Source of the DNA: Apostichopus japonicus
Taxonomy: Eukaryota; Echinodermata; Holothuroidea; Aspidochirotida; Stichopodidae
Assembly (NCBI RefSeq): GCF_037975245.1
Contig: NC_092569.1
Coordinates: 11,286,501 to 11,350,500 of the forward strand
Direction: 5' to 3'
DNA length: 64,000 nt
Positions 1-60,719 of this stretch are shown here, piece after piece; within the stretch, counting starts at the first letter, position 1, and each line of letters begins with the position of its first letter. Under the pieces are notes generated by a model. The model searched no databases. It had not been told where the DNA came from and was given only the letters and a program-made list of their open reading frames with translations. Position numbers and translations under genes: made by a program.

Positions 1-2000
1 GAGCACCAAAACTATAAAAATTCAAACACTTTTTCTTTGCCCATTTTTCCCCTCAAAATACTGTTTTTTTAACATTAATTGACCTTTGGTGACCTCGGAT
101 CACATGACCGTTAAATTTGAAAATATTCCCCTATACCATTCGCAACTTGTCCCAGAATATCACCTGTGTCACACCTTGGCACTGGGAGTTATTGCACTAA
201 ATGTCTGAAAATTAACTTTGACCTTGTATAACTGAACCCACAAAGGTCACCTTGGGTCAACTCATTGAAATTTTTGAACAGTGAGAAGAGAATATAGCAT
301 CAAACTATAAATATTCAAACATTTTTTCTTTGCCCATTTTCTCCCGCCAAAATACGTTTTTTAACATTCACTGACCTTTGGTGACCTCGGATCACATGAC
401 CCTTAAGTTTTAAAATATGCCCCTATACCATTTGCCACTTGTCCAAAAATATCAACCATGTCACACCTTGGAACTGGGAGTTATTGCATTAAATGTCTGA
501 AAATTAACTTTGACCTTGTATAACTTCGCACACGAAGGTCACACGGGGGGGGGGGGGGGGTCAACCCAATGACATTTATGATCAGAAGGAATTTTTAACA
601 TCTGAAAATAGCATCGAAACTGTAAAAATCCCCAAAACACGTAAAGGTCACCAGAGGTCAAATTGAGGTCAAAGGTCACCCATATGCGGGTCGGCAATTG
701 GAATACATTGAAGCAACTGCCAACCCTAACGGACAATTTGTTCTCAAGTTATCGCAAAAATACTCGTTTTCTTATCATTAATTGACCTTTGGTGACCTTG
801 GATCACATGACCATTCGTTTGAAAATGTTCCCCTATTCCATTTGCAACTTGTCCCAAAATATCAACCGTGTCACACCTTGGCACTGGGAGTTATTGCACT
901 AAATGTCTGAAAATTAACTTTGACCTTGTATAACTGAGTCCACAAAGGTCACCTTGGGTCAACTCATTGAAATTTTTGATCGGTGAGACGTGAATATAGC
1001 ATCAAACTATAAATATTCAAACATTTTTTCATTGCCCATTTTCTCCCGCCAAAATACTATTTTTTTAACATTCATTGACCTTTGGTGACCTTGGATCACA
1101 TGACCCTTAAGTTTTTAAATATATGCTCCTATACCATTTGCCACTTGTCCAAAAATATCAACCATGTCACACCTTGGAACTGGGAGTTATTGCATTAAAT
1201 GTCTGAAAATTAACTTTGACCTTGTATAACTTCGCACACGAAGGTCACACGGGGAGGGGGGTGGGGTGGTCAACCCATTGACATTTTTGATCGGGAAGTA
1301 CCTTTGATATCCAAATCTAGCATCAAAACCAAACACTTTCTTTTTTGCCCGTTTTCTCTCAAAATAAGCATATTTTTTCTAATGTGACCTTTGACCTTTT
1401 GACCTTGGTTTCAGATGTAGTTTGATCTCCTGATTCCAAGAAACAAAACAACAAGTCTGTACAGCCATCCTAACTCGGACTGTAAAACTTTGACCCCATA
1501 TAACTTCGCACACAAAGGTCACACAGGGTCAACCTATTGACATTTATGATCGGAAGGTACCTTTGACATCTGAAAATAGCATCAAAACTGTAAAAATCCC
1601 CAAAACATGTAAAGGTCACCAGAGGTCAAATTGAGGTCAAGGGTCACCCAGATGCGGGTTGGCAATTGGATTACATTGAAGCCACTCCAAACCTTCACAG
1701 ACATTTTGTTTTCAAGTTATCGCAAAAATAGTTGTTTTTTAACATTAATTGACCTTTGGTGACCTTGGAAAAATAAATGTTAAGTTTCAAAATGTTACCC
1801 TAACCAGTTCACAACTTGTCCCAAAATATCAATCTTCTCGCACATTGGCACTGGGAGTTATTGCAGTTTTAATATTTTGGGTTTTTGGCCTCTATATAAC
1901 TGACCTTTGGTGACCTTCACAGGCACTAAAAACAATAGGGCTCACCTTCTCACTATGGCGGATCTATATACCAAGTTTGAGTTCAGTCCAACTTTCCCTT
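1..2000. repeat. Higher-order tandem repeat rich in AGGTCA half-sites
   Basis: The motif GACCTTTGGTGACC recurs at about 81, 373, 784, 1077 and 1751. Spacings alternate near 292 and 411 bp, giving a higher-order period of about 703 bp (81 to 784, 373 to 1077). Each subunit also carries a block reading CACTGGGAGTTATTGCA. No protein signal is visible. The array is cut by the left window edge and decays near 1.9 kb. It looks like a diverged satellite or a transposon-internal repeat. Confidence 0.85.
641..678 (+). promoter_or_regulatory. Repeat-borne cluster of nuclear-receptor-like half-sites (DR4, DR5, DR1)
   Basis: Four perfect AGGTCA half-sites lie at 645-650, 655-660, 666-671 and 673-678, so the spacers are 4, 5 and 1 bases. 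A second copy of the repeat at 1613-1646 keeps the same spacing, with GGGTCA as its last site. Direct repeats of AGGTCA with these spacings are classic binding patterns for RXR-partnered nuclear receptors. Whether they act here is unknown, since they are part of a repeated sequence. Confidence 0.4.
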
Positions 2001-10239: not shown

Positions 10240-11200
10240 GTACAAGAAACCAGGACAGACAAGAAGTCCAAGTAGACTTACCTGTAGACATTAACGAACC
10301 AAATATGAAAAAGAAAGCAACACTAAATAGCCAAAGTAGACACTGGTGCAGAAGGTAAGTTACTACCTCTACACACAAAATGTTATCTGACAAAATGTTA
10401 CCCACCACCACTAACAACAAGATAAAGACCAGTCCAAATTGAAGTATACAACGGGACTAATATAGCCCACTTAGGAAGCTGTTCGATTGACAGTATTGTG
10501 AATCAACAAAAGAGGATATAATTTAATGTGGTAGAAACAGTCAAACCTGTTATCATACCTGTAGGTCTTGACGTATCAGTACAACTCAAACTGGTAACAC
10601 TCAACTGTGACCTTACAATAGACAAGACACCGGATCAATAATACAGTACCAGTGACTTACTAAAGACATATCCCAGGTGATTTGATGGTATAGGAAAATT
10701 TAAGGAAAGTTCAACATAATTTTGACAAAGACATAACGCCTGTGATACGTACACCCTCTGAGACGCTGCCCATTACATATAGAAAATCAGATCAAGGAAT
10801 TCAGAGATGATAAGGCTAGACATTCTAGCACCGGTGACTGAACCTACAGACTGGGTATACAGTACGTGATACGTACACCCTCTGAGACGCTGCCCAATAC
10901 ATATAGAAAATCAGATCAAGGAATTCAGAGATGATAAGGCTAGACATTCTAGCACCGGTGGCTGAACCTACAGACTGGGTATACAGTACGTGATACATAC
11001 ACCCTCTGAGACGCTACCCATTACATATAGAAATCAGATCAAGGAATTCAGAGATGATTAGGCTAGACATTCTAGCACAGGTGACTGACTGAACTTACAG
11101 AGTGGGTATACGTGATACGTACACCCTCTGAGATGCTGCCCATTACATAAAATCAGATCAAGGAATTCAGAGATGATAAGGCTAGACATTCTAGCACCGG
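10240..11200 (+). mobile_element. Degenerate Ty3/gypsy-type retrotransposon, protease to start of RT (left part)
   Basis: On the plus strand, codons from 10336 read VDTGAEGKLLPLHTKCY, the aspartic protease active-site region (DTGA) of gypsy-type Pol. At 10681 the frame reads FDGIGKFK, the conserved linker just before reverse transcriptase, and further on LDILAPVTEPTDWV. Several in-frame stops (for example near 10411 and 10678) and small frameshifts show it is dead. No LTRs, gag or integrase were recognised. The RT-start segment is tandemly amplified here, and the rest of the RT continues at 17667 after a large insertion. Confidence 0.85.
10742..11200 (+). repeat. Tandem amplification (~124 bp) inside the gypsy RT start
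   Basis: Units begin GTGATACGTACACCCTCTGA at about 10742, 10866, 10990 and 11112. A fifth begins at 17695, beyond the 6.47-kb insertion. Units are highly similar and each covers the same RT N-terminal stretch ending in TEPTDWV. Since the insertion lies inside unit 4, amplification probably came first. Confidence 0.9.
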
Positions 11201-24512: not shown

Positions 24513-24784
24513 TCAAACTACCTGCTGAAAAGGACGAATCTTCATTTCTGAATATTTGATGTTGTAATTACTGCCGGGTAAGTAGTACCAATAAGGACTA
24601 GTATAACTACTTCGACTGGCGTGGTAGTTTCCATTGAGGCAATAATAACAGTTATTGTACCACCAGGCACCGTGATAATAAACAGCACAGTTGGAACTAT
24701 AAGCATCGTTGTCACTGTCTTTGGTAGTGAACTGTTGGTTCAAGAAATAACGAAGACCATAACCATCAGGGTTGCTGCGAGTGT
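24513..24784 (-). CDS. Gene A FReD-2 C-terminal (binding) exon
   Basis: 272 nt, phase 1 to stop. Contains QFTTKDSDNDAYSSNCAV (calcium loop and first disulfide cysteine), HGAWWYNNC (second cysteine), SEMKIRPF and a QQVV tail. The usual S-N-L-N-G of FReD proteins reads C-L-N-G here, through a 3-nt deletion relative to gene D that removes a residue and adds a cysteine. Confidence 0.92.
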
Positions 24785-27700
24785 CTGCAAAGAAGATCAC
24801 AGAACAAATATATTAACATTCTATGTAATGTCACTGAAAGACAAACATATTGATGTTGCTTGAAATGGGAGTTTCATTTATGAAGGATTTTATTCACGAA
24901 TTAACGTTTATAGTTCATTATTCCATTTATTGCAAATTAAATGTTATCGTTTATTATTCTTAGTTTCTTCCGATTAAGTTTATTAATTTTATACCAAAAT
25001 TATATTTCGGTACTGCTGAAATCACATATGCTGTAACATCTAATGACTAAGAACAAAAATATAAAATAAAATACAAAATATGACGTAAAGTAAGGTGTAT
25101 CAAAAACGTTCATACTGTTTTCGATGAAATAAACCGTAGTAAAGTAATGATAACTGATACGGCATCATTGTTGAGAGTAAATGACACAAAATCCAACATT
25201 GTGGCCTGAAACTTGGTTCTGCCCTTCTGATACAGTTCGATGATGCTAATTTGAATTGTGTGCAATTGTATATTCGAAGAAAGTATTGTATACATAAGTA
25301 GTGCGTGATTGTTGCATGGACGTGGGTGCATAGGTCAGTGTATAACAGAGGTTTCTATGTGTAGGCCTGAAATTGGACAGAACATAGTATGAGAATGATT
25401 TATTATGCTGTTGATGTTTCATGGATCAGGTAATATTATTGTGTCTTTGTTTTAATTAATTATGGAAGGAAGGATACAAATCTCAAGAAGAAAAATATGG
25501 ATAAATCAATCCATCCACTCGTCATCATGTTATAAATTATTGCATTATCACTGCAAATATTTTATTTATGTAAGTTTCCGGTCATTTTTTTTTAGGAAGC
25601 CTTGTAATATGTTATTCACAAGATAACACATAATAAAAACATTCAACTACGTACAGACCGTAGGAGCATTAATAGTTGTAGAATTGTGCAGATATCTAAA
25701 TGATGTTTATGTAACCAAATAAATTGTATAACAAACCCGCTGTTCCACTGTAGGTTCCAAGTTGAGATAACCGATATTTATCGCTTTCGTCATTAATCCG
25801 GAAGTAGTCAAACTTGGCATAGTATGGTGTACCATCTCTGTTCACCATATCAATCCTAATTTCATATCTCTTTTGATTGGTCAAGTTAGAAAGCTTATCA
25901 TTTCCAAGCCAAAACTCGTGGTCTAATTCTCCAAAACCTTCTTTGTAGCTGTCCCATCCGAGGTAGAAATCCTCGGTTCCATCCACACGACGTTGAAAAA
26001 CCTTTGTTTAAATGTGTGAATAAGAGGAATACTTTTGTCATGATCAAATAGGGCAAACTATTAACTAAATTGTCAACATTTTAAGAAACATTAGAGTTGA
26101 AAATCGTTGACTTAAACGAATTTGAAGGAACTGATAAAGAAAAACCTCTCTAAAACATTTTTCATTAAAGAAATGTCCGTTACGTAGATCGTTCATTCAA
26201 CTGCAGATATTAACCTGTAATGAGAGTATGACAAAATCACAAAACGATTGAAAGGGATCTTTAAAACGTGATACATAGTAATGGCTTCAGTGTGGATATT
26301 TTCCTGAAGGAAAATACAGTTCAGTATTTGTTCACTATAAGAATATATTATATTTGCATATTTTACTGGTCGTTTTATATTCTATATAGAATGGAACAGG
26401 GTTATTTTGATATATGGTAACTGTGGTTTAAAGTAAATCCATTAAGAACGAATATCCATTTTTATTTATAGCCTTGTATCAATAACGGTCACTACACTGA
26501 TATGTGATTTACACTTGTTTGTCAAGATACCTATTCTACTACAATCGACCAGAAGGTATATTCTATCACTGCTGTACTTTTGTGTACAATAGTACTTTGT
26601 AGTGCAATGTAATGCATTGTATTTTCTTACGTGCAGCAAGGGTATTGATTGTGTTTGTTGCAGTACAATGTAGTGTAGTATTGTGTGTTCATTGTGGTAC
26701 AATATCTAAAGTGTAGTTTAATACAGTGTATTACCTAATAAGTGTGATCAATGCGGTTATGATCAATGAATTGACTTACCGTCCATCCTCCTCCGTCAGT
26801 CATGTTGCAGTAAACCTCAAAGGCCTCGCCGGTCCACCCGGTTGGTTTGATTCTGTATATATCGTTATCCTCGGATTCATTCTCGTAAATTTCATGACAA
26901 TCTTTAGGATGGCATGCATATTCTTCATCCCATGTGATCTGCCCGTTGGTACAAACACCTTTTCTTGTACATCCAGGGTTCACGTAAGAGCCACCTTCCT
27001 GAAACACAAAATTATTCTTTACTTTAATGTTTACAGATTATATTTAACCCTGAGGTTGTTTTTCTTATCATCCATGGTAAATACTGTTCTGTATTGTAAT
27101 GTCCCCTTGTAAGCACTAAAATTCCCTACGCGGATTAAACTATAATTTGACAGGTATTCCTATAACTGTATAGTTAAATGGACTCAAAAATAATTCATAT
27201 ATTGGAATTTGATTGAACTTATATTGCATTCATTATAAAAGATAGTATTTACAGTGACTGACTGGTTATATGGAAAAATCTTCAACACTGCTGTTGTTTG
27301 TAGAATAGTTGTTGGAAACTGTCATAGTGAATAATCTTTGACATATAGCTCCAGATTTGACTGCCTAAAAGTTTATCAAACCAAATGAAAATCAAACAAC
27401 TTACTGGAATAACTGTCTGTCCCTCTGATTCGTAACATCCACACTGTTCTTGAGGTACACAGGCTGATCCCTTCATGAAATATCCATCGGAACAAACACA
27501 GGCTTCGACTTCATTACAGACCCCATCCTGACACACTTCTGGAGCACCACAAGTCCGCTGACAGGAGTTACTGCAGTTTCTATAGACCATGTTGTAGGGG
27601 CAAAGTGTTATAACGTCTGCGGGAATAAATATGTAGGTAAAATTGAAACATATTGATGATGTAAACTTCGTTGTGTATTTTAACTGCAATGAACATGCTG

Positions 27701-29637
27701 TGAAACTTGTATCAAATGCCTATATTACAACATACTCCATCAGAAAAACAAACACATGGCTAGGTGTAAATGATCTCTAGCGATATCATCATATATTTGT
27801 ATTGTTCTCAGATAAGTTCTTAACATAAGTGGCAACTGTTTACCTGACAAAACTGAATCCATTAGTTGTCAGCCTAAAAATGAATCAGTAATTTCCTTAA
27901 GTTACTGTTTCACATAATAGTAATACAAATGTCAAATGGAAGGTACAAGTTACACTGGTGATTGGGTAAACATGGGCAGATCCACGAAGTAAATAGGAGG
28001 GCAGTGTGGCACATGGGTCGTTAAAGCTGATTCCAATGTAGGGGAATCTGCGGTCGCTCTCCTAGAAAAAAAAGTCTCGACTTTAGATTGCAGATTTAGG
28101 CTATAAATTATGTCTAATATAAGGCTTTTACTTAAGAATGTGCCAATTACTGCATTTGTTTGTGTTGCGTTGAAGGGGAGGGAGTGGGGGTCATCACAGA
28201 TTTCTGGATCCGCGCCTGATACGGCTATATGAAGTCGAAGCTGCCAATTGTGGTGAACTAAAGGTCATCTGACCTGATAACTGGGAAAAGGGGAACAAAT
28301 ATTAAGGATATTAAGCAGAAATGTTGATATAACTTACCTGTTCTTCCAGAAAAATTTCCGAGACTGAACAACTTGAAGTTGCTGAATTCATCACTAATGC
28401 GGAAGTTATCGTAAGAAACACGTATTAAGGAACCATATGATGATGTCATCTCAATGACCAATTGATACTTCTTTTGATTGGTCAAGTAAGAAAGCCTCTC
28501 ATTACCGAGCCAGAATTCCTGAGATAAAAAGCCGAAGCCAGACTTGTAGCTGTCCCAGTCACGACTGAAGTCGATGGAACCGTCAATGCGACGTTGTATT
28601 ACCTAACAGTGTAAATGATTTAGGAAATGATATCAAAGTCATTGATGTGTGCATTGTGAAAAAACGTCACTAGAAACCATTATTTTGCCAAAGATAGTCT
28701 ATAATGCTTTACATCAGGATATGCATACTGTGTATTATGTATGCGCATCTACCTATTGTGGTATCACCCGGAAAAATTGGTAAATAAAAAGGGGAAGGGA
28801 AAGAGAAACAGAATAAGAGAGAAAGAAACATGTAAAAGTAAATCGACTGGAGAGACCTACCGTCCATCCACCAGAACTGTCTGCGTTATCACAGTAAACC
28901 TCAAACGGTTCTAGATAACCATCTGGTTTGATCATGAAAACACCAGTAGAGTTATGAGATGAACATTGCTCCTGGACTTCTCTGCAATCTCTCGGGTAAT
29001 TCGATTGTTGGTAGAAGAAAAACGACGAACCTAGTACGTCCAAGAAAGTAAATTGGTTTGCTTTTGAGAGTTGATTAACAGTGAAGTTTAAATAAAATGT
29101 TATTGTCATGTCTAACTAGCATGCGATGAATCTAAATATTAGCGTATTATAATATTAATGTTTTTAGCACGCTGTTGCCTGTTCTAGCTGATATCCAACT
29201 TATCATTTGAAGTACACAAATCTTTCCAAATCGAACGAAAACGAAAAGTATATTTGTATAAAACATTCACAAGAAATGATCACTGCATGTTAATACCGAT
29301 TGCTAAGGAAGTAACATCATAAATCTAACATAAACCTATGTATTCAAAAAATTCTAATGATATTTAATCATGACGTTCTTACCTGAAGACTTCATTTACA
29401 TAACATTAAAGGACTGCAAAGTTAACTTACTTAAACTATTATCACTGACCGTTAAATACCACTGATTAGGAAATAGCATCATAATTATAACGTTAATACA
29501 CATATTCGTATAATTTGTATGTTACTTAATCATGACGTCATATTTTGATGACTCATTTACATAAGATTAGAGGCCTGCCAAGTTCACTTACCTACACTAT
29601 TATCACCAGTGTTGTCATTGATTGTCTGTAGAGCATT
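24513..29637 (-). CDS. Gene A: half-FReD / TIL / FReD secreted protein
   Basis: Seven minus-strand exons join in frame: 29592-29637, 28861-29030, 28338-28602, 27405-27616, 26780-26998, 25737-26001, 24513-24784. They give 482 codons plus TGA, without a start exon. Domain order: short linker; incomplete fibrinogen-related domain (subdomains A and B only, from PRDC through WLGN to FSGRT); cysteine-rich TIL domain with TILa-like tail; complete FReD ending KIRPF. The last exon carries the calcium-loop DSDND and the conserved C-A-V...GAWWY block, so the second FReD looks functional. Probably secreted and lectin-like (family knowledge plus inference). The start exon is not certain; a candidate lies at 37865-37945. 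An almost identical but broken copy is gene D, and gene C is a divergent relative on the other strand. Confidence 0.88.
25737..26001 (-). CDS. Gene A FReD-2 subdomain B exon
   Basis: 265 nt, phase 0 to 1. Reads VFQRRVDGTEDFYLGW, HEFWLGNDKLSNLTNQ and ends GTYSGTAG. Acceptor CAAAG, donor GTTTGT. Seven nucleotide differences from the gene D copy. Confidence 0.92.
26780..26998 (-). CDS. Gene A TILa tail and FReD-2 subdomain A exon
   Basis: 219 nt, phase 0-0. Begins EGGSYVNPGCTRKGVCTNGQ, the TILa/VWC-like continuation that follows TIL domains, then KDCHEIYEN...IYRIKPTGW...FEVYCNMTDGGGWT of the FReD. No EGF between them, unlike gene C. Confidence 0.9.
27405..27616 (-). CDS. Gene A TIL-type cysteine-rich exon
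   Basis: 212 nt, phase 1 to 0. Cysteines follow the trypsin-inhibitor-like pattern: LCPYNMVYRNCSNSCQRTC, CVCSDGYFMKGSACVP, QCGCYESEGQTVIP. TIL domains occur in VWF/zonadhesin-type proteins and in protease inhibitors. Which role applies here is unknown. Confidence 0.88.
28338..28602 (-). CDS. Gene A FReD-1 subdomain B exon
   Basis: 265 nt, phase 0 to 1. Reads VIQRRIDGSIDFSRDW, EFWLGNERLSYLTNQ and ends FSGRTG. In ordinary FReDs the C-terminal binding exon follows. Here the next exon is instead the TIL exon, joined in frame (phase 1). Confidence 0.9.
28861..29030 (-). CDS. Gene A FReD-1 subdomain A exon
   Basis: 170 nt, phase 1 to 0. Starts SSFFFYQQSNYPRDC and ends GGWT, with the FReD hallmarks FMIKPDG and PFEVYCDN. 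HNST is a possible N-glycosylation site. Acceptor TACTAG, donor GTAGGT. Confidence 0.88.
29391..29610. repeat. Local ~160-bp duplication around the linker-exon donor
   Basis: TCATTTACATAA...CTGC(A/C)AAGTT...CTTAC(T/C)TA..ACTATTATCAC occurs at about 29391-29447 and again at about 29551-29607. The second contains the gene A linker-exon donor. The first contains a decayed but still GTAAGT-bearing version. It is preserved in copy 2 (about 61080-61300). Confidence 0.75.
29592..29637 (-). CDS. Gene A linker exon
   Basis: 46 nt, phase 0 to 1. Reads NALQTINDNTGDNSV. Acceptor TTGACAG, donor GTAAGT. It corresponds in position and phase to gene C exon 47139-47169 but not in sequence. The weakest of the gene A exons, but conserved in copy 2 (61280-61325). 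Confidence 0.65.
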
Positions 29638-42419: not shown

Positions 42420-42500
42420 ATGGGGAACCAAAGAAGAGAACTTTTCTGCTTCAACTTTTTCACATTGTTGATAGGATGGAATGTCCTTGCATTAATAACG
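42420..42500 (+). CDS. Gene C exon 1, signal peptide
   Basis: Begins MGNQRRELFCFNFFTLLIGW and ends NVLALIT before GTAAGT. Charged start, hydrophobic core. 81 nt, phase 0. Confidence 0.85.
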
Positions 42501-45500
42501 GTAAGTTTCTGAAACTTTCTATGGTCTGGTTGGGTGAAACGTCTTTAAGCTGAGGACTGCAGCTACAGACAAAGATTTAACATCTTCGTTATTTTTTTCG
42601 CATCTAAGATCATTTTTGGTCTTCCTTTTAAACTGAAGATAACACTGTGTATTTATTATCACTACAACGTTTGTACGCCAAGTTGTATTTACAATAACTG
42701 ATACCGAAATACAGTTTACAATTTTTAGTGACGTTATTCAATAATTGCACGATATGTTTTCGAATTTTTTACATCTCAGCGTTTCAATATTCCAAAGAAA
42801 AATTTAGAAATAGAAACAGTCTTGTTTTAATAGGTGATGTAGTTTAAACATCAGTAAAGTGAAATAGCTATTTTACGAAACACTCCGATATAGGCTGCAC
42901 TTCTATTTTCTTTTAACAAGTTAAAAAAGCAAAATCAGTTGTGGTCTTTACTCAACCTGCTCTCAAAAAGAGAGTAAAACCTTTAAACTGCAATGCAAAT
43001 GCTATTTATAAGACTTTCTTAATCTATTAAGAAGTGTTATATCTTCACAAGTTGCAACTTAGTTTGATAAATTTCGTGTCTAGCAAATAGAAGAAGGAAC
43101 AAATGCGCAAGGACTAGTTAAAACCTATTTTGTTGAAGATTTTTAGTCTTTTTTAAACCATTTAACCAAGCTCGATATACACAATTATTACTTCGTGTAA
43201 TATTCAGTTTTCAATATCTTCCATTATAAGAAATGTAGCTTGCTCAGCAAACGTACATTTTAAAAGTTTGAACATAAACATGATCTATAAAATGTACTAA
43301 ATCATGATATTCATCATCAAAAGTTGCGCACTCTGTCGACTGATGATTTCCTTTGGCAGTGAAGACTTTTTCAGCTATGATAACCCAAGCTTGTCAGTTT
43401 GAAATATACTTAGATGATTAAGACTCAATTATTCAGTTTGAGAATGTCGATGTAAGGAACTAGATTGAAGACTATATATAACAGCGTTCCTATTTAATAT
43501 CCTGTGAATTGTTTCTTTCGTGCACTTCACAAAATTATTTCGTGAAACTCATTTGTCAGAGTAAACTGGTTTAAATCTTTCTTCATCCAATAAACAAAAG
43601 TATTTTCTGTTTTCTTCTCAATTTAAATATTGATAAGCTTGGACGGAAGCATTGTAAATCCAAAATCGATTGGTTTTTGAACTGCAAATGCAATGTCTAT
43701 TTCATATTTACGGTGAGATCAACTTGACACGGTGTAACCGTCGCTATTTTTGAGACAGTCTGCTTCTACGACATTATTAACAAACGTATTCACAAAAGGT
43801 AGTGTTTTTTTTTTATAATTTACGCTTAATGTACCATGCATACGTACTCACTAGATATTATTCTGGGTTTTATTCGTGATACCTTCATGGTTTTCAATCA
43901 ATGCAGATTGTCTACCGCAGATTATGAATGAACTTACACTCGAATACCGTTCTAAAGAAGTCAAAGTATAGTTTTTACTGGGATAAAGAGATCTCAAGAA
44001 AAATAGGTTTTAACTGAAGCGAAAGAACCGCAAATGATTTTTTTTTATACAGTCTGCTTCTACGAAATGTTTAACAAACGTATTCACAAAAGATATTGTG
44101 TTTTTTTTTCTATAATTTACGCTTAATGTATCATGCATGCGTACTCAATAGATATTATCCTGGGTTTTATTCGTGATAGCTTCATGGTTTCAATCAATGC
44201 AGATTGTCTACCGCAGATTATGAATGAACTTACTCTAGAAAACCATTAGAAGAAGTCAAAGTATAGTTTTCACTGGGATAAAGAGATCTCAAGAAAATAT
44301 AGGTTAAAACTGAAGCGCAAGAACCGCAAATGATTTTTTTTTGGGATACAGTCTGCTTCTACGACATTTTTAACAAACGTATTAGTTGGTTTCACGAATA
44401 TGGTGGCTAAAGGATGTACTCCAGTTCTGCTTTTGGATTCACCTTATTAAATAGAAGAAGTGAATACACATGAGTGAGTGGTCTTTATTAACGGGTTTCT
44501 ATTTTTAACACTTTCATTAAAACAATAAAAATATGTGTTCATTAAATAATGAACATGAGTTCATATTAGTGTGAAGGAAATTATAAGGAACGATCATAGT
44601 TTGGTTTCAGTGTGATTTCGAAGCAGCATCATGTGAAAGGAACCTTAGTCGCAAAATTATATATAGACGGGATCTAAAATAAGAAAAGGCAACAGCCCTT
44701 GTTACAGGTGTATGCCTACTGCTTTGATTTAACCGAATATATTTTTCTCGTGTAAAATAAAGAACCAAAAATGTGTTAAATTGTAAGGAATAACGGTAAT
44801 GATCAACATTTTTACAAATTGATTGATAAATTTAAATTATCATTTTTAACAACGATATTTCCTTTGTTATATTTAGTGTAACCTTTGTAATAACATTTTG
44901 CGTTGTTAGAAAAGGTGTGGTATTATCATATCCTAACACCTTAAACTCCATGTGGGCCATGTGTCAAGGGTCTCGCGCTTTAAAAAATAACCGGCAACGT
45001 TGAAGCCGAATTTAACCATTTTATGATAAAGCTAGAAATCCAATGCAGATGAAGGAAACTGTCGAATTAATGCATTAAACACCAAGTTCATTCATATTAT
45101 ACTTTACTTTTTTCATAATAATATTTTTAACGATTCAAATTGATCACGCAGACATTTTCATGTAATGCTAGTATTCTTATTAAAAAACGCACAAGTTTTC
45201 TGGTTTAACAAAATGATATAGCTGACAATCTGCAAAGCTTTGCAGGCTTTCAGTTATGCTATGACAAAAATCTGTGGTTAAAATACCAAATATCAGCATT
45301 ATCTTTTACCTCGGCCTTTTTGGTTACCAATTCACTTACACATCCTTGTGTTTAACCCAAAGGGATCCCCGTAATCGCATGTACAGAAAAGACTCGTATG
45401 GTCACAGAGAAATTACCTTGCAGTATAGTTGGCGTATGTATGTTACCGTGCACATCAAATGCATGTCGAATAAATATCATAGCATTGTGTTCTAAGAACT

Positions 45501-48500
45501 TTTCAATTACATGGGAACGGAAGCTTGTTGTAAACGTGATGGTAACATTTAGGGGTTATCTTCCAGTATATGTTTCTTGTAGATTTATACAGATTTTCTT
45601 TTTAATTGATTTAACAGATTTTTAACGTAAAGCTACACATCAGGGGCCACTGACCCGAATTGTGAACTTTACAAATACATGGTTAACGCATAAGTTTATG
45701 ATAATGTGATGATTACATGTTGAGGTTCACTCCATTGCAATTTATGTATATTTTAATAATTTACCGCTCTGTTCTGGACATACCAAACACATTTTTAATG
45801 TTACTTAAAGTTACATACGAGTAGCCAATGAGTTCACATTATCGGTATAACTTCATTTCATTCTCGCAGAAAATATCGCAATTTGGTGAATAATGAAAAT
45901 ATTAAGACATTAGATTTAACAAATATAAAATAATCAATGTGTACATATACTTGCCAGAGCGATATTTCTCTATACAAAGGAATTGTCCAAGCGGCTAAGC
46001 GTAGATTCCGTTCACACGAACCAGTATTTCAATTTTATATCCAGATACCAGACAAAGGTACCGAGTTAAATGCATGCGATCTAATGAAATTCATTTCAGA
46101 CTTTTCCAGAACATAAGGATTGAGCATATGTTTTTAATTCCTACAAAGTTTTTGTTCACTGCTTTGATGTTTTTTTAAAACATCGGTAAAAATAGAATAT
46201 CCTGCCAAGAAAGTCTATTTAATTTTATTACGTTTTCCTGTCGAACGTTATTGACACTGATCGCTTCTCGGCCTTTTGGCTAAGATCTTGTCTAGTATCT
46301 GTTCCCTTTCGAGGGGAATCGTGATACACCTGACGATGATCACACAGTCACATTCACAGGCTCGATGCAAGGGGACTGGGATTCAGAGCGGAACAGTCTT
46401 TCGGTTGTTTGGTTTTCTTGCCCAGGTTTTTTCCTGGATGACTTTGTTTTTAAAGTATTGACACTTCGCCTCATTTATTTGGAAGACTGCAGTGAGAAAC
46501 TGCACTGGCAACTTCCAGGCAGAATTAAATGTTGCTTGCGAAAACAATGAAATGATAACAAAATGAGTGAGAGCAAATATGAACCATAGCTGTAATTTTC
46601 ATCTCGCATCACGGCGGATATTTTCGTGTAAGCTTTGCATTGTACATTATCAATTCGAGTCGAGAATAGAAAAAATAGTATTATCTTTAGAGAGAGAATG
46701 TGCTGGTCAAACTTATCGAATTTGTCCTACAAAAAGAAAAATTATATACCGACAAGGAAATAGAGAGAGACGAAAAGGGTTTTGACAGTTGTTGTTATTC
46801 TGAGGATATCTGAATCTGATAAAGTGAAAAACATATGGACGACCGGACACTTTGAGTAAACATGCTTTGTTTTTAAAGAACATCCCCCCATCCCTCCCTC
46901 TTGAAAAATATCCTTTGTTTCAGAAAATATTTTAACTCCGACCTGCTATACGTTAGTTGTTTCCCCCGTGAGTACTATTGTTTTGTTTAGATTAGGTATT
47001 TGGAATTTGCGATAAATGCAGTTATAATTACAATTTTACGCACTATATCACTGAAAGTTCTTCACAGAAATAATGCTGTAATATTCATATTTACGAGGTT
47101 ATAAAGATCAGTCTATACGTTTCTTGTCTTACACTCAGGCTTCCGCTGACGTCCCAGATCAATCATCGAGTAAGTTACTTTTTAATGTTGACCATAAGTA
47201 AAATTTCTTACACTTTAGCTTAAAAACATTCACAAACCATTTACAATTCCAGGCGATAATATTCATATTTGAATTAATCTACACGTTTGTTCATTAATGA
47301 AGATTCTTCCGTAAGGATACAGTTAGTATAAGAAAATAAACACAAACTTGTTATAAAATTGAATACAAATTGTTGAGAGAGGAGGGAGGAGGGAGGAGGG
47401 AGGAGGGAGGAGGGAGGAGGGAGGAGGGAGGAGGGAGGAGGGAGGAGGGAGGAGGGAGGAGGGAGGAGGGAGAGAGAAATAAAATTCATTGACAGATACT
47501 ACCTATCTCGATCGTTTTAAATGTTGTTAAGATGATGCGATTGGCTCTGAATAATCGGCGTGTATGCAAACCGGGCAGCGAATTTTGTTTCCCAAACAGG
47601 TTTGGAATTGTGTGTAAATAGTTGCTCATGATTGGTCGGAAAAGTTACGTCATCACCGTAAAAACCTTTACTCTGAGTTAACAAAAATGTCTGCATTCAT
47701 TCGTTGCAAAGATACACCCGTTGAAAATTAACCGCTTTTCGTATCTTTGAAATTAGTTTAGACATATTTAGCATACTAGTTTGTTATGATTGTATGATCA
47801 ACTATCGATGTTTGATCGAAGTTTTCTGTGTTAACATCGCATAGTGAAAGATTCGTACACCAAAGATATGCTGTAGGCCTATATGTATTAATACTGTGTA
47901 CGCAGTGCAGTGACGGAAATGTATCATTCCTGCAGACTATACTGTTTTGCGTGTATTCATTCAAGACTAATGAATTCGCGTCGTGAAGTTGATTTTAGCG
48001 TACCCATTCCACAAAACGAATTCCAATTTCAATTAAACGGCTCGCAAATCTTAGAAAACGTAACCACGAACCCAATGGAATGAAACGAATGTATCATAAG
48101 AAAGGTCAATAATTGATACAAGCATTATAAGTAAAGTTAGGGCGTTTGAAGGGAAACCCCGTAACTAGACCTTATTAAGTGTCAGTGTGTTATTCAGTGT
48201 TTGTCTTCGAGCTTCCAAGCGATGGTCATAATTGGTGCTGACGTAACGAGCAGTTTTGGCTGAAAACTCTGTAATTGCAAACCTGTTAGTGGAAAAATAT
48301 TCCATGTATTGATCATGATGGTTGCACTTTTTACAACAACAACAAAGATAAAGTTAATGCTGCTGTCATCCATTATTTTCTGTTATAGGTTCATCTTACT
48401 TTCTATTTCAATCAACCGAGTACCCGAAGGATTGCCAAGAGATCCTCAGAGCATGTTCAAATACCAAAAATGCATCTGGTGTTTACACAATCAAACCAGC

Positions 48501-51500
48501 TGGTTTCCCAGAGCCGTTCGAAGTGTACTGTGATAACAACTTAGGCAGTGATGGATGGACGGTAAGTTTTTTTTTACAAACATTCAAAATATAATACTGG
48601 ACCAGTCAATAAAACAGACAAACGGAATACTCAAATCAAATAGGAACTTTAAAATTGAAATTCTGTTTGGCAAACCTCTTCGAACAATAGGAGACCGAAA
48701 TTTGTGATTCATAAAGTAGCATTAAAATCTCATACCAACGTATAGAAAATTATGTTAATAAGTCACGCCATGTTTTTCAAATAATACGAGAGAAATGTTC
48801 AAGTTTCCTACTTACTTCGATTTTATGCAGCTGAAATGAAATATTGTCAAGAGTGACGTAGTGTGGACGACTGGAATCAACTTTCTTTAATCCTTTAAAT
48901 ATCATTCATTCAGGGTACCTTACATTAGTTTGAATAATATCAACCACAGTTTGAGAAATACTATATAAGGTTTGCTAGAATTGATCAACAAGGCCAAACG
49001 TTCTGGCATGACTTTGGGGGATAAAAGATGTTTATGAGGAATAATGTGGAAAATTAGACATACCTTCATTGTGTTTTATTACGACAGGTAATACAGCGAC
49101 GTACGAATGGATTTATCAATTTTAATCGGAATTGGGACGATTACAAGCACGGCTTTGGATTTCTGGGAAGTGAATTTTGGTTAGGAAATGAACAAACTGC
49201 TTACCTAACAAATCAAAAGAAGTATCAACTTCGTATGGACTTTACGAATGCTGTAGGGCACTCGTATCACGTGACCTTCGACGATTTTCGTATCGCTGAT
49301 GAATGGAGCCAATATTCTATTCAAAGTCTTGGAGACGAAGGTGGCAATGCAGGTAAAGGTCCATCTCAACGAAAATGGATTTTCAATCTTATTTCATGTT
49401 TTCATTAGAACTATGTTAAAGAAGACAATGTAGGTACGTGCAACGTTTCTCTCTAATTGTTCAAGGTTTCTTTAGAGTTTCTAGTAGAATATATTCAAAC
49501 ATATATTTATCATCCAAAAAGAAAAAAAAGCACAGCACCACAATTTGAATAGAACTATTAACCTTAACGTAATAATAGAATTTAACAATTTCCTTGTCGT
49601 TGTCAAGAAGTATTGCTTACCATAACTTTAATACGGGTTAATCTTTTCACATCCCCCCCACTGTCTGTACTGTAGGTGATAAAGGGTTTATTGGCAGCGA
49701 TTACGACATTTTTGTTTGGACCATTTAATAATTCAATGCGTCACACCACCAAGTCAAGTTTAAGATAATTTTTCTTTTACCTTCATCCAGGTCCATTTAT
49801 TGAGTGGTGTCCATCTAATACGAGGTTTGCTAACAGTACATGTGAGAGACGTTGTACCGAACCAAATACGTGTATCCCTTCAGCATCTATGGAATCAGGC
49901 AGATGTATCTGTCCAGACGGTTATATGATACAAGGAGAGGACTGCATACCTTATAGTCAGTGTGGATGCTTTGTACAAGAAAAGGGAAGTGTGCTTAATG
50001 TAAGTCAATGGATCAGTGAGAAGTTTTTTTTTTTTTTTCATTGAAGCTGCTCCAAAGATATATGCTGATTTTGTATACTTCTTCCATAAGCTAATAATGG
50101 TATGGAAGATTTTGCAGCACTAGTCAATTCCTCATTTCCACATGCTGTATTACTTATATTTACGATGTTCCTTCTTCGCTAAATCTTTCAGGTTACTGTT
50201 TGCATATATTATTCTATGAACTATTAATGAATATTACTTGAAAAAAAAACTGGTCATGGCAATTTGACTTAAATTCATTAGTAACAAGTGATTCAGCAAA
50301 TTAGTTTTTGATAAACTGAAATTGTTAAAGTATATTTTCCACGACAGGACGGTGAATCATTTGTCAATTCTGACTGTACTTCCCGTGTAAACTGCAGCGA
50401 TAATCGGCTGATTCATGAAGATGACTACCAGTGTAGTGACGATGCAACGTGCCAGGAGAGAGACGGCGTGCAAAGATGCATTTGCAACGATAGATTTGAA
50501 GGAGATGGGATAACATGTATTCGGAAAGAACCCCGGAAGGATTGCTACGAGATATACAATACAGGGATCCATATCGACGGGGTTTATACCATCTATCCTT
50601 CTGGCTGGGAGGAATCTGGCTTCCAAGTCTACTGTGAGATGTCAACAGACGGAGGAGGATGGACGGTAAGTCTTCACATTTCACAAAAGAGTGATAACTT
50701 CTAACCGCCTTGATCGAGTTGAACGCGGCCCACGGGCAGTACAGGTTTGAATATAAAAAGGCACTACGAAGCTTCTTCTCGATTAAGCAGGATAATTTTG
50801 TTGATATATCAATTCGATTGTGCATCACTATGTCTGACGTTGAATATCTATTGAACTTCACACTCACCGGAAAGATGATTTCACATAACGAATTTGAGAG
50901 TTTTGTTTTGCTGAGTGTGTTTACTGAGCGAGAGATGTCCAATGCACTAACGATGTTTTATCGCTACTAGCTCTCAGTAGCGTTAGCCTTGTGTCGTCTT
51001 ACAAGAAACAGCTTCTAGACACAAATATCAGTATCTAAACATAACAGTACTGGCTGACCTAGCTTTCTTCGCGAGAGAAACATGATCAATGGTCTGAGAC
51101 AATTTTAAGAGCAACACTCTGTGGCAGAAATTGTTTGCTGGCGATAAACATCTCGAGAACTTTCTCATAAAAATAATTACATTCTCATTCATTTGCGCCA
51201 TTTCAGATATGTGGCGATGCATGAATTTACCTTTTTTTTTCTTTTGTACAGTATTATACGATTTCCTTATCGTTACTACGTATTTACAACACATGTGTTA
51301 CGTTTAAAACGGGTTGCGAACCAAATTCCTTGAAATGTGTGAAAGCGTTGTCATCCATCGGGTTTTGGAAAAAAAAATCTGCTGAGCACTAGGTAGATAT
51401 AATAAATAATATATCAGATAAAAATTTACGAGGAAACAATAACAAAAACAGCATTGGAACGATATTTAACTTTATATCATATTTATACCATTACATATTT

Positions 51501-53426
51501 CTAGGTTCTCCAGCGAAGGAGGTCTGATTCAGTTAACTTCTATCGTGTTTGGAATGCATACAAGCACGGGTTTGAAAGTCCAAGCGGTGATCACTGGCTT
51601 GGTAACGACAAGATTCACGACCTTACAACTCAGAAGTCATACCAACTTAAGGTGGATCTGACAGATTCAACTGGTTCACAGTACTACGCCCTCTACTCCA
51701 GATTCAGCATTGGAGACGAGGATAACAAATATACGCTCTCTTTAGGCTCGTTCTCTGGAAATGCAGGTTGGTGTATTTTGCAACATTTACTTTATAAAAC
51801 TTTGGTTTGATAACTTTCGTTCTTGGTTTGGTTAACAATGCACCACACTCCACAGGATTCACAGAAAAATGCTCGAGAAAAAGAAAGTTGCTAAGTGAAA
51901 CAAAAAATATAAACATATAATATATTACCCCTTTTTACAGTTGCTGTTAATCGTCATCTACTACATCAGTACTGTCTTAAATAGTGATTTTAATAAACCT
52001 ACAAGACCTCGTGGCTAAATTTTGAGAAGGGAATGGGAAACAAAAATGCACTCAAGTTTAATATAATTTGACCAGCCACACGTTTGGCATTACTTACTCA
52101 TTGGAAGATGCAGTTATCAAATATATCATAATTAAAACAAAAACTGAGCCTAATGCTATTCAATCTACTTGCTGATCGAAAAGACACGAACAATGATTAC
52201 CTTAACTGTTCGAGTCTGAAAAACTGGAATTTTAGAACAAACGTTTTAACTTTGACACAACAACTGAATCTGCTGTAATAGATGTGGGCTATGTCTATAT
52301 CACTATTAACCAAATATCGCTTGTATTGTGACTGTGATAAGCGATAGAGTTGCGAGGTTTGGCGGGATCACGACCACTACACCAGTCTACATTGGTTTTA
52401 AATTCCTCTTTTTTGTTATATTGAGAATATTTCAATGACAACGGTGTTCATATGATGTCCTCATTAATCACTTTACTATGATATCATTAATCTGAACAAA
52501 TGCAATGATGTACATAATTTAATCGAATGTGACTCATGCACACCACACATTCGGAAGTGATGATATTGACACCATATATGATGTGATGTTAAATTGGTGA
52601 ATGTGTCTCTCAAAGGCGAAAACAAGTTTTGAACTAATGCACAATTGGGTAGTTATAATCTCGTTGACGAAAAGACTTCCTGAATGATGCATCTTATCCC
52701 TTTAGATTCGCCCTGAAACAAATTCATCTAATCGAACATTTCTTTCACTTCCGATGAATTGAGTATATTGAAAAACTAAATGTACGAACCTGGCTTACAT
52801 AAAGAATGAAAACGAATAGTTTTCAAATCGAAGTGGCGATAAATTATATCCATTTATCCACACCCACCAGCCTCTCCCCTCCTCTCACTACAAATAACCA
52901 TACTTCCTTTTGCACTTAAACAAAATCATAATAATATTCACATACAAGCATGTATTGAATACTTGCAAGCATGGTTACATATACATTAAAGGTTAAATAC
53001 GGTTATTAAATTAATTCTAAAGTTTAACTGACAACAAATTCCTGCCATGTTATGGTTTGAGTTTTTCCATTTCCTATGTATGCGATGCTGATTAAATACG
53101 TCCTTTTTTTCATCCTCTCAGGTTATAACTCTATGGGCTTGAACTCCGGAGATCCGTTCAGCACGCGCGATAGGGACAACGATGGCACGGATGATTGCAA
53201 CTGTGCACAGAGGCATCAAGGTGCCTGGTGGTACCCTCATCGTTATTATAATGATAACAATAATTGCTTTAAATGGTATGGAAGTGGATATTACCGCCAT
53301 TGCACTTATGCTAACCTCAACGGAGACTTCCAGTACAGCGACTACAGCGGAATCTTCTGGTATAAACTTTCTGGGAACGATTGCGGTATTGCCGGTACAA
53401 AAATGAGGATACGACCAGTTGGATAA
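42420..53426 (+). CDS. Gene C: signal peptide / half-FReD / TIL / EGF / FReD secreted protein
   Basis: Eight exons join perfectly in frame: 42420-42500, 47139-47169, 48389-48561, 49088-49352, 49791-49999, 50348-50665, 51505-51766, 53122-53426, giving 547 codons plus TAA. Order: signal peptide; short linker; incomplete FReD (subdomains A and B); TIL domain; TILa-like tail with one EGF-like domain; complete FReD with calcium-loop DRDND and two conserved C-terminal cysteines. The ATG is chosen because a hydrophobic segment follows at once and the exon ends in GTAAGT. All introns are GT-AG. Probably secreted recognition or lectin-like protein (family knowledge plus inference). It is the only intact, complete member of the cluster, a diverged paralogue of genes A and D in opposite orientation. 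Confidence 0.92.
43756..44390 (+). repeat. ~295-bp tandem duplication in gene C intron 1
   Basis: CAGTCTGCTTCTACGA begins at 43756, 44050 and 44349. Units 1 and 2 are nearly identical over their length, including AATGCAGATTGTCTACCGCA. The third copy is truncated after about 40 bases. Confidence 0.92.
46260..46350 (+). ncRNA. U2 snRNA-like 5' segment (pseudogene or snRNA-derived element)
   Basis: The first 28 bases (ATCGCTTCTCGGCCTTTTGG then CTAAGATC) match the invariant 5' end of U2 snRNA. TAGTATCTGTTC follows, where U2 has the branch-site pairing region and stem IIa start. The five bases before TAGTA read TTGTC instead of AAGTG, so the GTAGTA box is CTAGTA. A short hairpin (TTCCC/GGGAA) stands where stem IIa should be, and then similarity fades. 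No Sm site (AATTTTTG-like) or 3' stem-loops are evident. It lies in gene C intron 1, same strand. Most likely a pseudogene or U2-derived SINE, less likely a variant snRNA. Confidence 0.6.
47139..47169 (+). CDS. Gene C exon 2, linker
   Basis: 31 nt, phase 0 to 1. Reads ASADVPDQSS. Acceptor CACTCAG, donor GTAAGT. Position and phases match the gene A/D linker exon although the sequence differs. Confidence 0.75.
47379..47472. repeat. GGGAGGA minisatellite, about 13 units
   Basis: Perfect 7-bp purine repeat on the plus strand in gene C intron 2. The strand asymmetry allows triplex (H-DNA) formation, and array length is likely polymorphic. The polyproline-like frame on the minus strand is an artefact of it. 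Confidence 0.95.
48389..48561 (+). CDS. Gene C exon 3, FReD-1 subdomain A
   Basis: 173 nt, phase 1 to 0. Reads SSYFLFQSTEYPKDCQEI, YTIKPAGFPEPFEVYCDN and ends DGWT. NASG is a possible N-glycosylation site. Acceptor GTTATAG, donor GTAAGT. Confidence 0.92.
49088..49352 (+). CDS. Gene C exon 4, FReD-1 subdomain B
   Basis: 265 nt, phase 0 to 1, the same size as the FReD-B exons of gene A. Reads VIQRRTNGFINFNRNW, EFWLGNEQTAYLTNQ and ends GGNAG. Only 438 nt of intron follow before the TIL exon, with no C-terminal FReD exon in it. Confidence 0.93.
49791..49999 (+). CDS. Gene C exon 5, TIL-type cysteine-rich domain
   Basis: 209 nt, phase 1 to 0. WCPSNTRFANSTCERRC, CICPDGYMIQGEDCIP and QCGCFVQEKG show the TIL cysteine spacing. 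NSTC offers a glycosylation sequon. Donor GTAAGT. Confidence 0.92.
50348..50665 (+). CDS. Gene C exon 6, TILa tail, EGF-like domain and FReD-2 subdomain A
   Basis: 318 nt, phase 0-0. DGESFVNSDCTSRVNCSD is the TILa-like tail. CSDDATCQERDGVQRCIC then FEGDGITC is an EGF-like domain of nidogen type. KDCYEIYNTG through GGGWT starts the second FReD. The gene A/D exon in this position lacks the EGF. Confidence 0.93.
51505..51766 (+). CDS. Gene C exon 7, FReD-2 subdomain B
   Basis: 262 nt, phase 0 to 1. Reads VLQRRRSDSVNFYRVW, HWLGNDKIHDLTTQ and ends FSGNAG. The usual EFWLGN reads DHWLGN. Donor GTTGGT. Confidence 0.92.
53122..53426 (+). CDS. Gene C exon 8, FReD-2 C-terminal (binding) exon
   Basis: 305 nt, phase 1 to stop TAA. 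FSTRDRDNDGTDDCNCAQ (calcium loop), HQGAWWYPHRYYND, then NLNGDFQYSDYSG and TKMRIRPVG. It is about ten residues longer than gene A/D in the region between the WWY block and NLNG, and adds cysteines there (NNC, RHC). Confidence 0.93.
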
Positions 53427-56065: not shown

Positions 56066-56221
56066 GTGACGTCGATGTACTATTCTTCAATATCAGTCAC
56101 GTGACTTCTCAATCCATATTTTCAGTCAAATTTCTTCTATATACTTTTGAGGAAAAAGATACTAGCTCGATCTGCTCCAATATTTGTGTAAGCATATTTG
56201 TCTAGAGATCCCTCAAACTAC

Positions 56222-56487
56222 CTACTGAAAGGGACGAATCTTCATTTCTGAATATTTGATGTTATAATAACTGCCGGGTAAGTAATACCAATAAAGACTG
56301 CTATAACTATCTCGGCTGGCATGGTAGTCTCCATTGAGGTTGGAATAATGACAATTCTTGTACCACCAGGCACCGTGATAATTAACAGCACAGTTAGAAC
56401 TATAAACATCGTTGTCACTGTCCTTTGTACTGAACTGGTAGTTGAGGTGATAACGAAGAGCATAACCATCAGGGTTGCTGCGAGAGT
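56222..56487 (-). pseudogene. Gene D FReD-2 C-terminal (binding) exon
   Basis: 266 nt, phase 1 to TAG. QFSTKDSDNDVYSSNCAV, HGAWWYKNCHYSNLNGDYH and SEMKIRPFQ. It keeps the usual SNLNG that gene A lost, and ends three residues earlier than gene A through CAG to TAG. Confidence 0.9.
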
Positions 56488-57428: not shown

Positions 57429-57693
57429 CCGCTGTTCCACTGTAGGTTCCAAGTTGAGATAACCGATATTTGTCGCTTTCGTCATTAATCCGGAAGTTGT
57501 CAAACTTGGCATAGTATGGAGTACCATCTCTGTTCACCAGATCGATCCTTATTTCATATCTCTTTTGATTGGTCAAGTTAGAAAGCTTATCATTTCCAAG
57601 CCAAAACTCGTGGTCTAATTCTCCAAAACCTTCTTTGTAGCTGTCCCATCCGAGGTAGAAATCCTCGGTTCCATCCACACGACGCTGAAAAAC
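57429..57693 (-). pseudogene. Gene D FReD-2 subdomain B exon
   Basis: 265 nt, open. Two amino-acid changes relative to gene A (IDL for IDM, KFDNF for KFDYF). Confidence 0.9.
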
Positions 57694-58467: not shown

Positions 58468-58686
58468 CGTCCATCCTCCTCCGTCAGTCATGTTGCAGTA
58501 AACCTCAAAGGCCTCGCCGGTCCATCCGGTTGGTTTGATTCTGTATATATCGTTATCCTCGGATCCATCCTCGTAAATTTCCTGACAGTCTTTAGGATGG
58601 CATGCATATTCTTCATCCCATGTGATCTGCCCGTTGGTACAAACACCTTTTCTTGTACATCCAGGGTTCACGTAAGAGCCACCTTC
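58468..58686 (-). pseudogene. Gene D TILa tail and FReD-2 subdomain A exon
   Basis: 219 nt, open in the gene A frame, about five nucleotide differences. EGGSYVNPGCTRKGVCTNGQ start, GGGWT end. Confidence 0.88.
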
Positions 58687-59093: not shown

Positions 59094-59304
59094 TGGAATA
59101 ACTGTTTGTCCCTCTGATTCGTAACATCCACACTGTTCTTGAGGTACACAGTCTGATCCCTTCATGAAGTATCCATCGGAACAAACACAGGCTTCGGCTT
59201 CACTACAGACCCCATCCTGACACACTTCTGGAGCACCACAAGTCCGCTGACAGGAGTTCAGCAGTTTCTATAGACCATGTTGTTGGGACAAAGTGTTATA
59301 ACGT
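59094..59304 (-). pseudogene. Gene D TIL exon with one-base deletion
   Basis: 211 nt. Gene A has AACTGCAGTAACTCC; here it reads AACTGCTGAACTCC, giving TGA at 59258-59260. Downstream text is otherwise conserved (CSDGYFMKGSDC in the original frame), so the loss is young. Confidence 0.9.
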
Positions 59305-60025: not shown

Positions 60026-60290
60026 CTGTTCTTCCAGAAAAAATTCCGAGACTGAACAACTTGAAGTTGCTGAATTCATCACTAATGCGGAAGTTATCGT
60101 AAGAAACACGGATTAAGGAACCATGTGATGACGTCATCTCAATGACCAATTGATACTTCTTTTGATTGGTCAAGTAAGAAAGCCTCTCATTACCGAGCCA
60201 GAATTCCTGAGATAAAAAGCCGAAGCCAGACTTGTAGCTGTCCCAGTCACGACTGAAGTCGATGGAACCGTCAATGCGACGTTGTATTAC
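60026..60290 (-). pseudogene. Gene D FReD-1 subdomain B exon
   Basis: 265 nt, open. About four nucleotide differences from gene A. Again joined to the TIL exon, with no C-terminal FReD exon between. Confidence 0.88.
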
Positions 60291-60549: not shown

Positions 60550-60719
60550 CGTCCATCCACCAGAACTGTCTGAGTTATCACAGTAAACCTCAAAAGGTTC
60601 TAGATAGCTATCTGGTTTGATCATGAAAACACCAGTGGAGTTATGAGATGAACATTGCTCCTGGAATTCTCTGCAATCTCTCGGGTAATTCGATTGTTGG
60701 TAGAAGAAAAACGACGAAC
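60550..60719 (-). pseudogene. Gene D FReD-1 subdomain A exon
   Basis: 170 nt, open. SSFFFYQQSNYPRDC start, GGWT end. A few replacements relative to gene A (for example FQEQC for VQEQC and KPDSY for KPDGY). Confidence 0.87.

What the first reader, a model, noticed from the sequence alone, without database searches (positions are those of the whole stretch)
42420..53426. Half-FReD / TIL / EGF / FReD architecture, shared by three genes
In genes A, C and D the first fibrinogen-related domain has only its A and B exons. The phase-1 junction that normally leads to the C-terminal binding/calcium exon is used to splice in a TIL exon instead, followed by a complete FReD. The gap is the same in the diverged gene C and the A/D pair, so it is stable rather than a recent deletion. 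Gene C adds an EGF. I know of ficolin-like, tenascin-like and FREP-type layouts, but not this one. A degenerate FReD without its binding pocket could serve as a scaffold or dimer interface.
Basis: partly seen in the sequence, partly recalled or inferred. Interest (0 to 1): 0.75.

Follow-up and report, generated by a model that had tools for sequence, protein, structure and literature searches.

The report
Half-fibrinogen lectin family with variable heads
A sea-cucumber-like genome carries a very large family of secreted fibrinogen-type proteins that pair a conserved half domain with a complete binding domain, many of whose members bear a highly variable tyrosine- and cysteine-rich loop at the expected binding site; the layout looks undescribed, but its function is untested.

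Summary
Gene C (42420-53426, +) reads through eight exons: leader, FReD exons A and B, TIL, TILa, EGF, then a complete FReD (547 aa). Gene A has the same order without EGF. Gene D is a copy of A in a repeat spaced 31.7 kb apart, and its TIL exon is frameshifted, so the window holds two independent witnesses, not three. Genome-wide the same B-exon-to-TIL succession occurs at least 247 times on one chromosome, plus 5 on another, and never in control orientations. None of 64 B-TIL introns read holds a third FReD exon; 60 keep both splice sites in phase 1. The half-domain B exons form one clade and are under purifying selection (dN/dS 0.22). EGF is the rule; A/D lack it. In many members the last exon of the complete FReD carries a Tyr/Cys-rich insert of mostly 20-43 residues beside the known acetyl-binding site, nearly always different between genes. 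Best reading: secreted lectin-like proteins with a conserved half-FReD/TIL/EGF scaffold and a diversified head. FREP expansion in Apostichopus japonicus is published; no listing of eight literature searches described the half-FReD layout. Function, expression and structure are untested.

The parts
42420..42500 (+). gene C exon 1: start codon and hydrophobic leader (signal peptide by inspection only)
   Evidence: open frame, GT donor
47139..47169 (+). gene C exon 2, short linker
48389..48561 (+). gene C exon 3: FReD exon A of the half domain (A1)
49088..49352 (+). gene C exon 4: FReD exon B of the half domain (B1), ends in phase 1
49791..49999 (+). gene C exon 5: TIL, enters in phase 1
   Evidence: Pfam TIL 17.0 bits, below cut-off
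50348..50665 (+). gene C exon 6: TILa + EGF + exon A of the complete FReD in one exon
51505..51766 (+). gene C exon 7: FReD exon B of the complete domain (B2)
53122..53426 (+). gene C exon 8: FReD exon C with insert, stop codon
28861..29030 (-). gene A exon A1
28338..28602 (-). gene A exon B1
27405..27616 (-). gene A TIL exon
26780..26998 (-). gene A TILa + A2 exon, no EGF
25737..26001 (-). gene A exon B2
24513..24784 (-). gene A exon C2, no long insert
60550..60719 (-). gene D exon A1
60026..60290 (-). gene D exon B1
59094..59304 (-). gene D TIL exon, frameshifted relative to A
58468..58686 (-). gene D TILa + A2 exon
57429..57693 (-). gene D exon B2
56213..56487 (-). gene D exon C2

Best explanation
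These are members of one large family of secreted fibrinogen-related proteins in which the first FReD ends after exon B and is joined in phase 1 to a TIL-TILa-EGF unit followed by a complete FReD (shown by sequence). I infer that they work as soluble, probably oligomeric, lectin-like recognition proteins: the half-FReD and the Cys-rich TIL/TILa/EGF unit form the assembly part, and the complete C-terminal FReD is the binding head. In many members the head is diversified by a length-variable Tyr/Cys-rich loop that sits where ficolin-type FReDs hold acetylated ligands. Shown: order, phases, family size as a lower bound, one clade of B1, purifying selection on B1 and TIL, the variable insert and its position. 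Inferred: secretion, oligomer, ligand binding, immune or coelomic-fluid role.
For: Order A-B-TIL-(TILa-EGF)1-3-A-B-C in 20 of 20 loci as far as each stretch reaches, and in 8 of 8 further gene-C-type loci and L124, likewise. 247 B-to-TIL pairs on C9, 0 in both control orientations. No C exon in 64 of 64 introns at E up to 10. Phase-1 donor in 61, acceptor in 63, both in 60 of 64; other phases: 1 donor, 0 acceptors. B1 one clade, 99/93. B1 dN/dS 0.22 [0.18-0.29]. Of 66 inserts that fit the pattern, Tyr 27%, Cys 12%, 63 distinct; they fall between the WWY and the C..SNLNG of FIBCD1, next to Arg412-His415 (passages of PMC10825690; the placing on that numbering is my count). TILa, EGF and A2 share one exon in gene C, which ties the two halves into one gene. 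FREPs are listed in Holothuria tubulosa coelomic fluid (passages of PMC12119288).
Against: No transcript or protein of this layout was seen. Insert dN/dS is 0.33 [0.27-0.40], so diversifying selection is not shown; insert dS is also high (1.15), which fits slippage, uneven gene conversion or misalignment. Exon A1 of the half domain is less constrained than A2 in the gene-C group (0.68 against 0.29). Some copies look broken: 8 of 80 C exons read have a stop, and gene D is frameshifted. Genes A and D have no long insert. L120 has two half domains in a row without TIL. The extra Cys of A1 is also in the ordinary FReD of L121. Whether the coelomic-fluid FREPs have this layout is unknown.
Confidence: 0.55

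Rival explanations
1. Matrix or adhesive proteins: the Tyr/Cys-rich loops are cross-linking sites, and the proteins build body-wall matrix, a clot or a regeneration scaffold rather than recognise microbes.
For: Tyr and Cys enrichment of the insert. FREPs rise in visceral regeneration of A. japonicus (passages of PMC5638244). Papers on echinoderm adhesive secretions hold the words trypsin inhibitor-like and EGF (listing only).
Against: The insert is confined to one place beside the binding pocket, and 63 of 66 are distinct, which a simple cross-linker would not need. There is a single terminal head, not long repeats.
Confidence: 0.25
2. The half-FReD is a passive relic carried along by tandem duplication, with no role of its own.
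For: Arrays are tandem and recent copies exist (31.7-kb spacing). Gene D is frameshifted. Exon A1 is weakly constrained in the gene-C group (dN/dS 0.68, 10 loci).
Against: B1 dN/dS 0.22 [0.18-0.29] in 31 genes, and 0.43 in 12 gene-C loci against 0.57 for B2 there. B match of at least profile positions 2-82 of 88 in 63 of 64 intervals. Stops inside B matches are rare: 1 of 150 hits, 2 of 150, 1 of 150.
Confidence: 0.1
3. The two halves are separate genes, or the third exon of the first FReD is used from elsewhere, so the layout is a gene-model artefact.
For: No transcript evidence here.
Against: TILa, EGF and A2 lie in one exon of gene C. Both splice sites in phase 1 in 60 of 64 intervals, never both in another phase. 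No C exon in 64 of 64 intervals.
Confidence: 0.03

Closest known systems
Ficolins, FIBCD1, tachylectin-5A (complete FReD lectins)
   Same: C-terminal FReD with the same parts; the second FReD of L018 matches FIBCD1 at E 5.1e-51
   Different: an extra N-terminal half-FReD, a TIL-TILa-EGF unit where ficolins have collagen (recalled), and a long insert in the pocket region
Expanded FREP family of Apostichopus japonicus (PMC5638244)
   Same: most expanded family of that genome, mainly clustered on one linkage group (passages)
   Different: the passages read describe no half-FReD, TIL or insert; the whole text and supplements were not read
Tenascins
   Same: EGF before a terminal FReD (recalled); tenascin-R FReD is the second PDB match of L018
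   Different: no FN3 match in the window proteins, a half-FReD in front, TIL present
Molluscan FREPs of Biomphalaria
   Same: diversified FReD family linked to immunity (abstracts in listings)
   Different: those carry one or two IgSF domains; here TIL/EGF and a half-FReD
TIL-TILa unit of von Willebrand-type D assemblies
   Same: TIL exon followed by TILa; the D-assembly comparison is recalled
   Different: no VWD or C8 match in the two window proteins

Membership tests
Fibrinogen-related domain (PF00147), second domain | full-length profile match | tested here: met
   3-220/221 in gene C, 2-220/221 in gene A
Fibrinogen-related domain (PF00147), first domain | full-length profile match with the C-terminal part | tested here: not met
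   2-132/221 and 2-131/221 only; no third exon in 64 of 64 introns
TIL (PF01826) | score over the curated cut-off | tested here: inconclusive
   gene A 30.4 vs 24.5; gene C 17.0 and L018 19.3, below it
Ficolin-type acetyl-binding lectin | pocket residues and calcium-site Asp residues conserved | tested here: inconclusive
   D17, N18, D19, WW and C..SNLNG invariant or nearly so in 60 C exons, but by my count Tyr405 of FIBCD1 aligns to His in L018 and the insert enters beside Arg412-His415
Ficolin-type acetyl-binding lectin | binds acetylated ligands | not testable with these tools
   needs protein
Molluscan FREP | IgSF domain before the FReD | tested here: not met
   no IgSF among Pfam hits of the two window proteins at E up to 1
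Tenascin | EGF and FN3 repeats before the FReD (recalled) | tested here: not met
   no FN3 hit in the two window proteins
A. japonicus FREP expansion | same species and clustered FReD genes | tested here: inconclusive
   671,581,487 bases in 35 contigs against 671.6 Mb in 34 scaffolds; species inferred, not named by any tool

The most novel reading that the evidence does not exclude
The family is a germline-encoded recognition repertoire of an echinoderm: hundreds of secreted proteins with one conserved assembly arm (a half-FReD that pairs or links chains) and a head whose binding pocket holds a Tyr/Cys-rich loop that differs from gene to gene, comparable in kind, not in descent, to Tyr-rich antibody CDR3 loops.
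Probability: 0.25. Interest if true: 0.85.

Novelty: new variant of a known kind. Interest (0 to 1): 0.62.

Why it matters
FReDs are usually drawn as one globular domain. A selected half domain kept at over 240 loci would show that its first two parts can serve alone, probably as an assembly module. The variable loop at the binding pocket would give a concrete, testable source of recognition diversity in an animal without antibodies, and a new way to read the published FREP expansion of sea cucumbers.

Tried and rejected
Hidden third exon in the B1-TIL introns: none in 64 of 64. Apparent loss of the last exon in L116 and L117: rejected, since about 1.1 kb of extra sequence would place it beyond the fetched stretch. 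Positive selection on the insert: not supported by counting, dN/dS 0.33. Structure of exon B1 and exon C2 alone, six and three window rows: mean pLDDT 41.1 and 37.5, not used, no fold search run. Two larger alignments (60 and 29 rows) were not handed to structure prediction, because its rule names window proteins and loci of other tools only. First exon limits for gene C were partly off by one base and were redone. A first splice count with a loose donor rule (62 and 63 of 64) was replaced by one with phase controls. The tree has 88 columns and 17 open forks; only the B1 clade is used. Each genome search scored only its 150 best candidates, so counts are lower bounds; 77 TIL and 32 B exons stay unpaired.

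Full report
The observation. In the window, gene C (+) reads through eight exons with AG and GT at every internal junction and an open 547-residue product. The exons are leader, linker, FReD A1, FReD B1, TIL, one exon with TILa, EGF and A2, then B2, then C2. The phases of entry are 0-0-1-0-1-0-0-1: B1 leaves in phase 1 and TIL enters in phase 1, as B2 leaves in phase 1 for C2. Gene A (-) has the same layout from A1 on, but TILa runs straight into A2 in a shorter exon, 219 against 318 bases. Pfam reads the first FReD only to position 132 of 221 in C and 131 in A and the second to position 220 in both. No other credible C exon exists in the window.

Corrections to the finding. A and D lie in repeats with a spacing near 31.69 kb; the families with that spacing that are listed are 88-100% identical (20 of 23 families shown), so they are one witness. 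D's TIL exon is one base shorter than A's and is frameshifted, whereas its other exons read on. The EGF that seemed special to C is present in 20 of 20 further loci, including L004-L006, whose B1 exons group with gene A, so A/D most simply lost it.

Scale. With B and TIL exons as single-protein queries, the chromosome C9 shows at least 279 B-type exons and 324 TIL exons. Of the 324, 247 have a B exon upstream on the same strand, 385-1808 bases away; none has one in the reversed order or on the other strand within 2.5 kb. The pairs run from 4 to 35 Mb of the 37.5-Mb contig. Five more pairs lie on C20. Each search scored 150 candidates, so these are lower bounds; 77 TIL exons and 32 B exons stayed unpaired.

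Test of the missing exon. I fetched 20 spread loci of 8 kb, 36 B1-TIL intervals, 54 C-exon stretches and 8 gene-C-type loci. Own profiles found the order A-B-TIL-(TILa-EGF)-A-B-C in 20 of 20 loci as far as the stretches reach. A1 is whole in 17, cut by the edge in L002 and L003, and not within the stretch in L001. C2 is one piece in 16, two pieces in L004, L008 and L016, and only a first third in L015. TILa-EGF occurs three times in L015 and L019 and twice in L018. Across 64 B1-TIL intervals no C-exon match appeared even at E 10. A consensus-like donor in phase 1 is present in 61 and an acceptor with a pyrimidine tract in phase 1 in 63; both in 60. In phase 0 the same rule finds 1 donor and no acceptor, in phase 2 none of either. 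L054 lacks the acceptor AG. C2 was seen in 6 of the 8 gene-C-type loci; in the other two it lies beyond the stretch.

Exceptions and neighbours. Of six further loci, L124 has the layout, with its last exon in two pieces; L120 has B-A-B-A-B-C, two half domains in a row without TIL; L121 is an ordinary single FReD; L119 and L123 show B and C in direct succession, and L122 an uninterrupted A-B-C. So half domains are not tied to TIL in every case.

Origin and selection. In a tree of 74 B exons the 38 first-domain exons form one side of a branch (99/93; 98% of bootstrap trees), next to the ordinary FReD of L121. Only 88 columns support it. In 31 genes of the 29-36 Mb group (33 less two with identical C exons), dN/dS is 0.22 [0.18-0.29] for B1 and 0.29 for TIL. 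In the gene-C group it is 0.43 for B1, 0.37 for TIL and 0.57 for B2 (12 loci each), 0.71 for C2 and 0.68 for A1 (10 loci each), but 0.29 for A2 (12 loci). So B1 and TIL are kept by selection, while A1 is less constrained than A2 in that group. Some copies are broken: 6 of 54 C-exon stretches and 2 of the 26 gene loci in which C2 was reached have a stop inside C2.

The head. Of 83 sources (54 stretches, 28 loci, gene C) 73 gave an uninterrupted C exon, and 66 of these fit a pattern for the insert. Of the 7 that did not, five (L005, L006, L007, L010, L020) have no long insert, L015 is cut short and L112 has an insert that misses the pattern. The 66 inserts are 20-43 residues long, one 85, with 27% Tyr and 12% Cys against 8% and 4% in the flanks, and 63 are distinct. 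The sample is not random: 48 come from the hits of one query in one region. The insert lies between the WW[FY] and C..SNLNG motifs, shown against FIBCD1 4m7f. In FIBCD1, Cys414, His415 and Tyr431 hold the acetyl group, and Arg412-His415 help to line a second pocket (passages). Insert dN is 5.4 times that of B1 [4.3-7.3], but its dS is also high and dN/dS is 0.33, so variability is shown and diversifying selection is not.

Cysteines. Exon A1 has three Cys in 23 of the 24 A1 exons read whole, A2 has two in 26 of 26, B1 none in 62 of 62. An odd Cys in the half domain would allow a link to another chain or to TIL; the ordinary L121 A exon has it as well, so it is not special to the half domain.

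What it does. I take the layout and family as shown, secretion as likely from the leader of gene C, and the scaffold-plus-variable-head mechanism as inference. Holothuria tubulosa coelomic fluid contains many FREPs (passages of PMC12119288), and FREPs rise during regeneration in A. japonicus (passages of PMC5638244). Neither says, in what I saw, whether these carry the layout.

What is known. FREP expansion and clustering in that species is published. Eight paper searches, in open-licence papers only, were aimed at the layout or the loop. Their listings, capped in most, show no title or abstract that describes it; two searches found no paper. Supplements were not open to me. So the expansion is known, and the layout and the loop appear new as far as searched.

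Noticed in passing
window 46260-46356 (+), intron 1 of gene C: U2 snRNA-like stretch, 44.7 bits against a cut-off of 46, spanning both ends of the 192-position model in 97 bases: probably a shortened U2 pseudogene.
   Followed up: partly
window 23.7-32.3 kb and 55.4-64.0 kb: Segmental duplication with a spacing near 31.7 kb carrying genes A and D; A-type and C-type genes interleave on opposite strands from 10.98 to 11.70 Mb of C9.
   Followed up: partly
L120 (C9:22410000-22415400): Gene with two half-FReDs in tandem before a complete FReD, without TIL.
   Followed up: no
C9 29-36 Mb, exons compared: Synonymous divergence is higher in the last exon than in B1 (3' flank of C2 to B1, 1.4 [1.04-2.16]), as if the 5' part were homogenised by gene conversion.
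   Followed up: no
window 47375-47472: Fourteen copies of GAGGGAG in intron 2 of gene C.
   Followed up: no
window 9-542, 10742-11200, 43747-44383: Tandem arrays of 292-, 124- and 296-base units.
   Followed up: no
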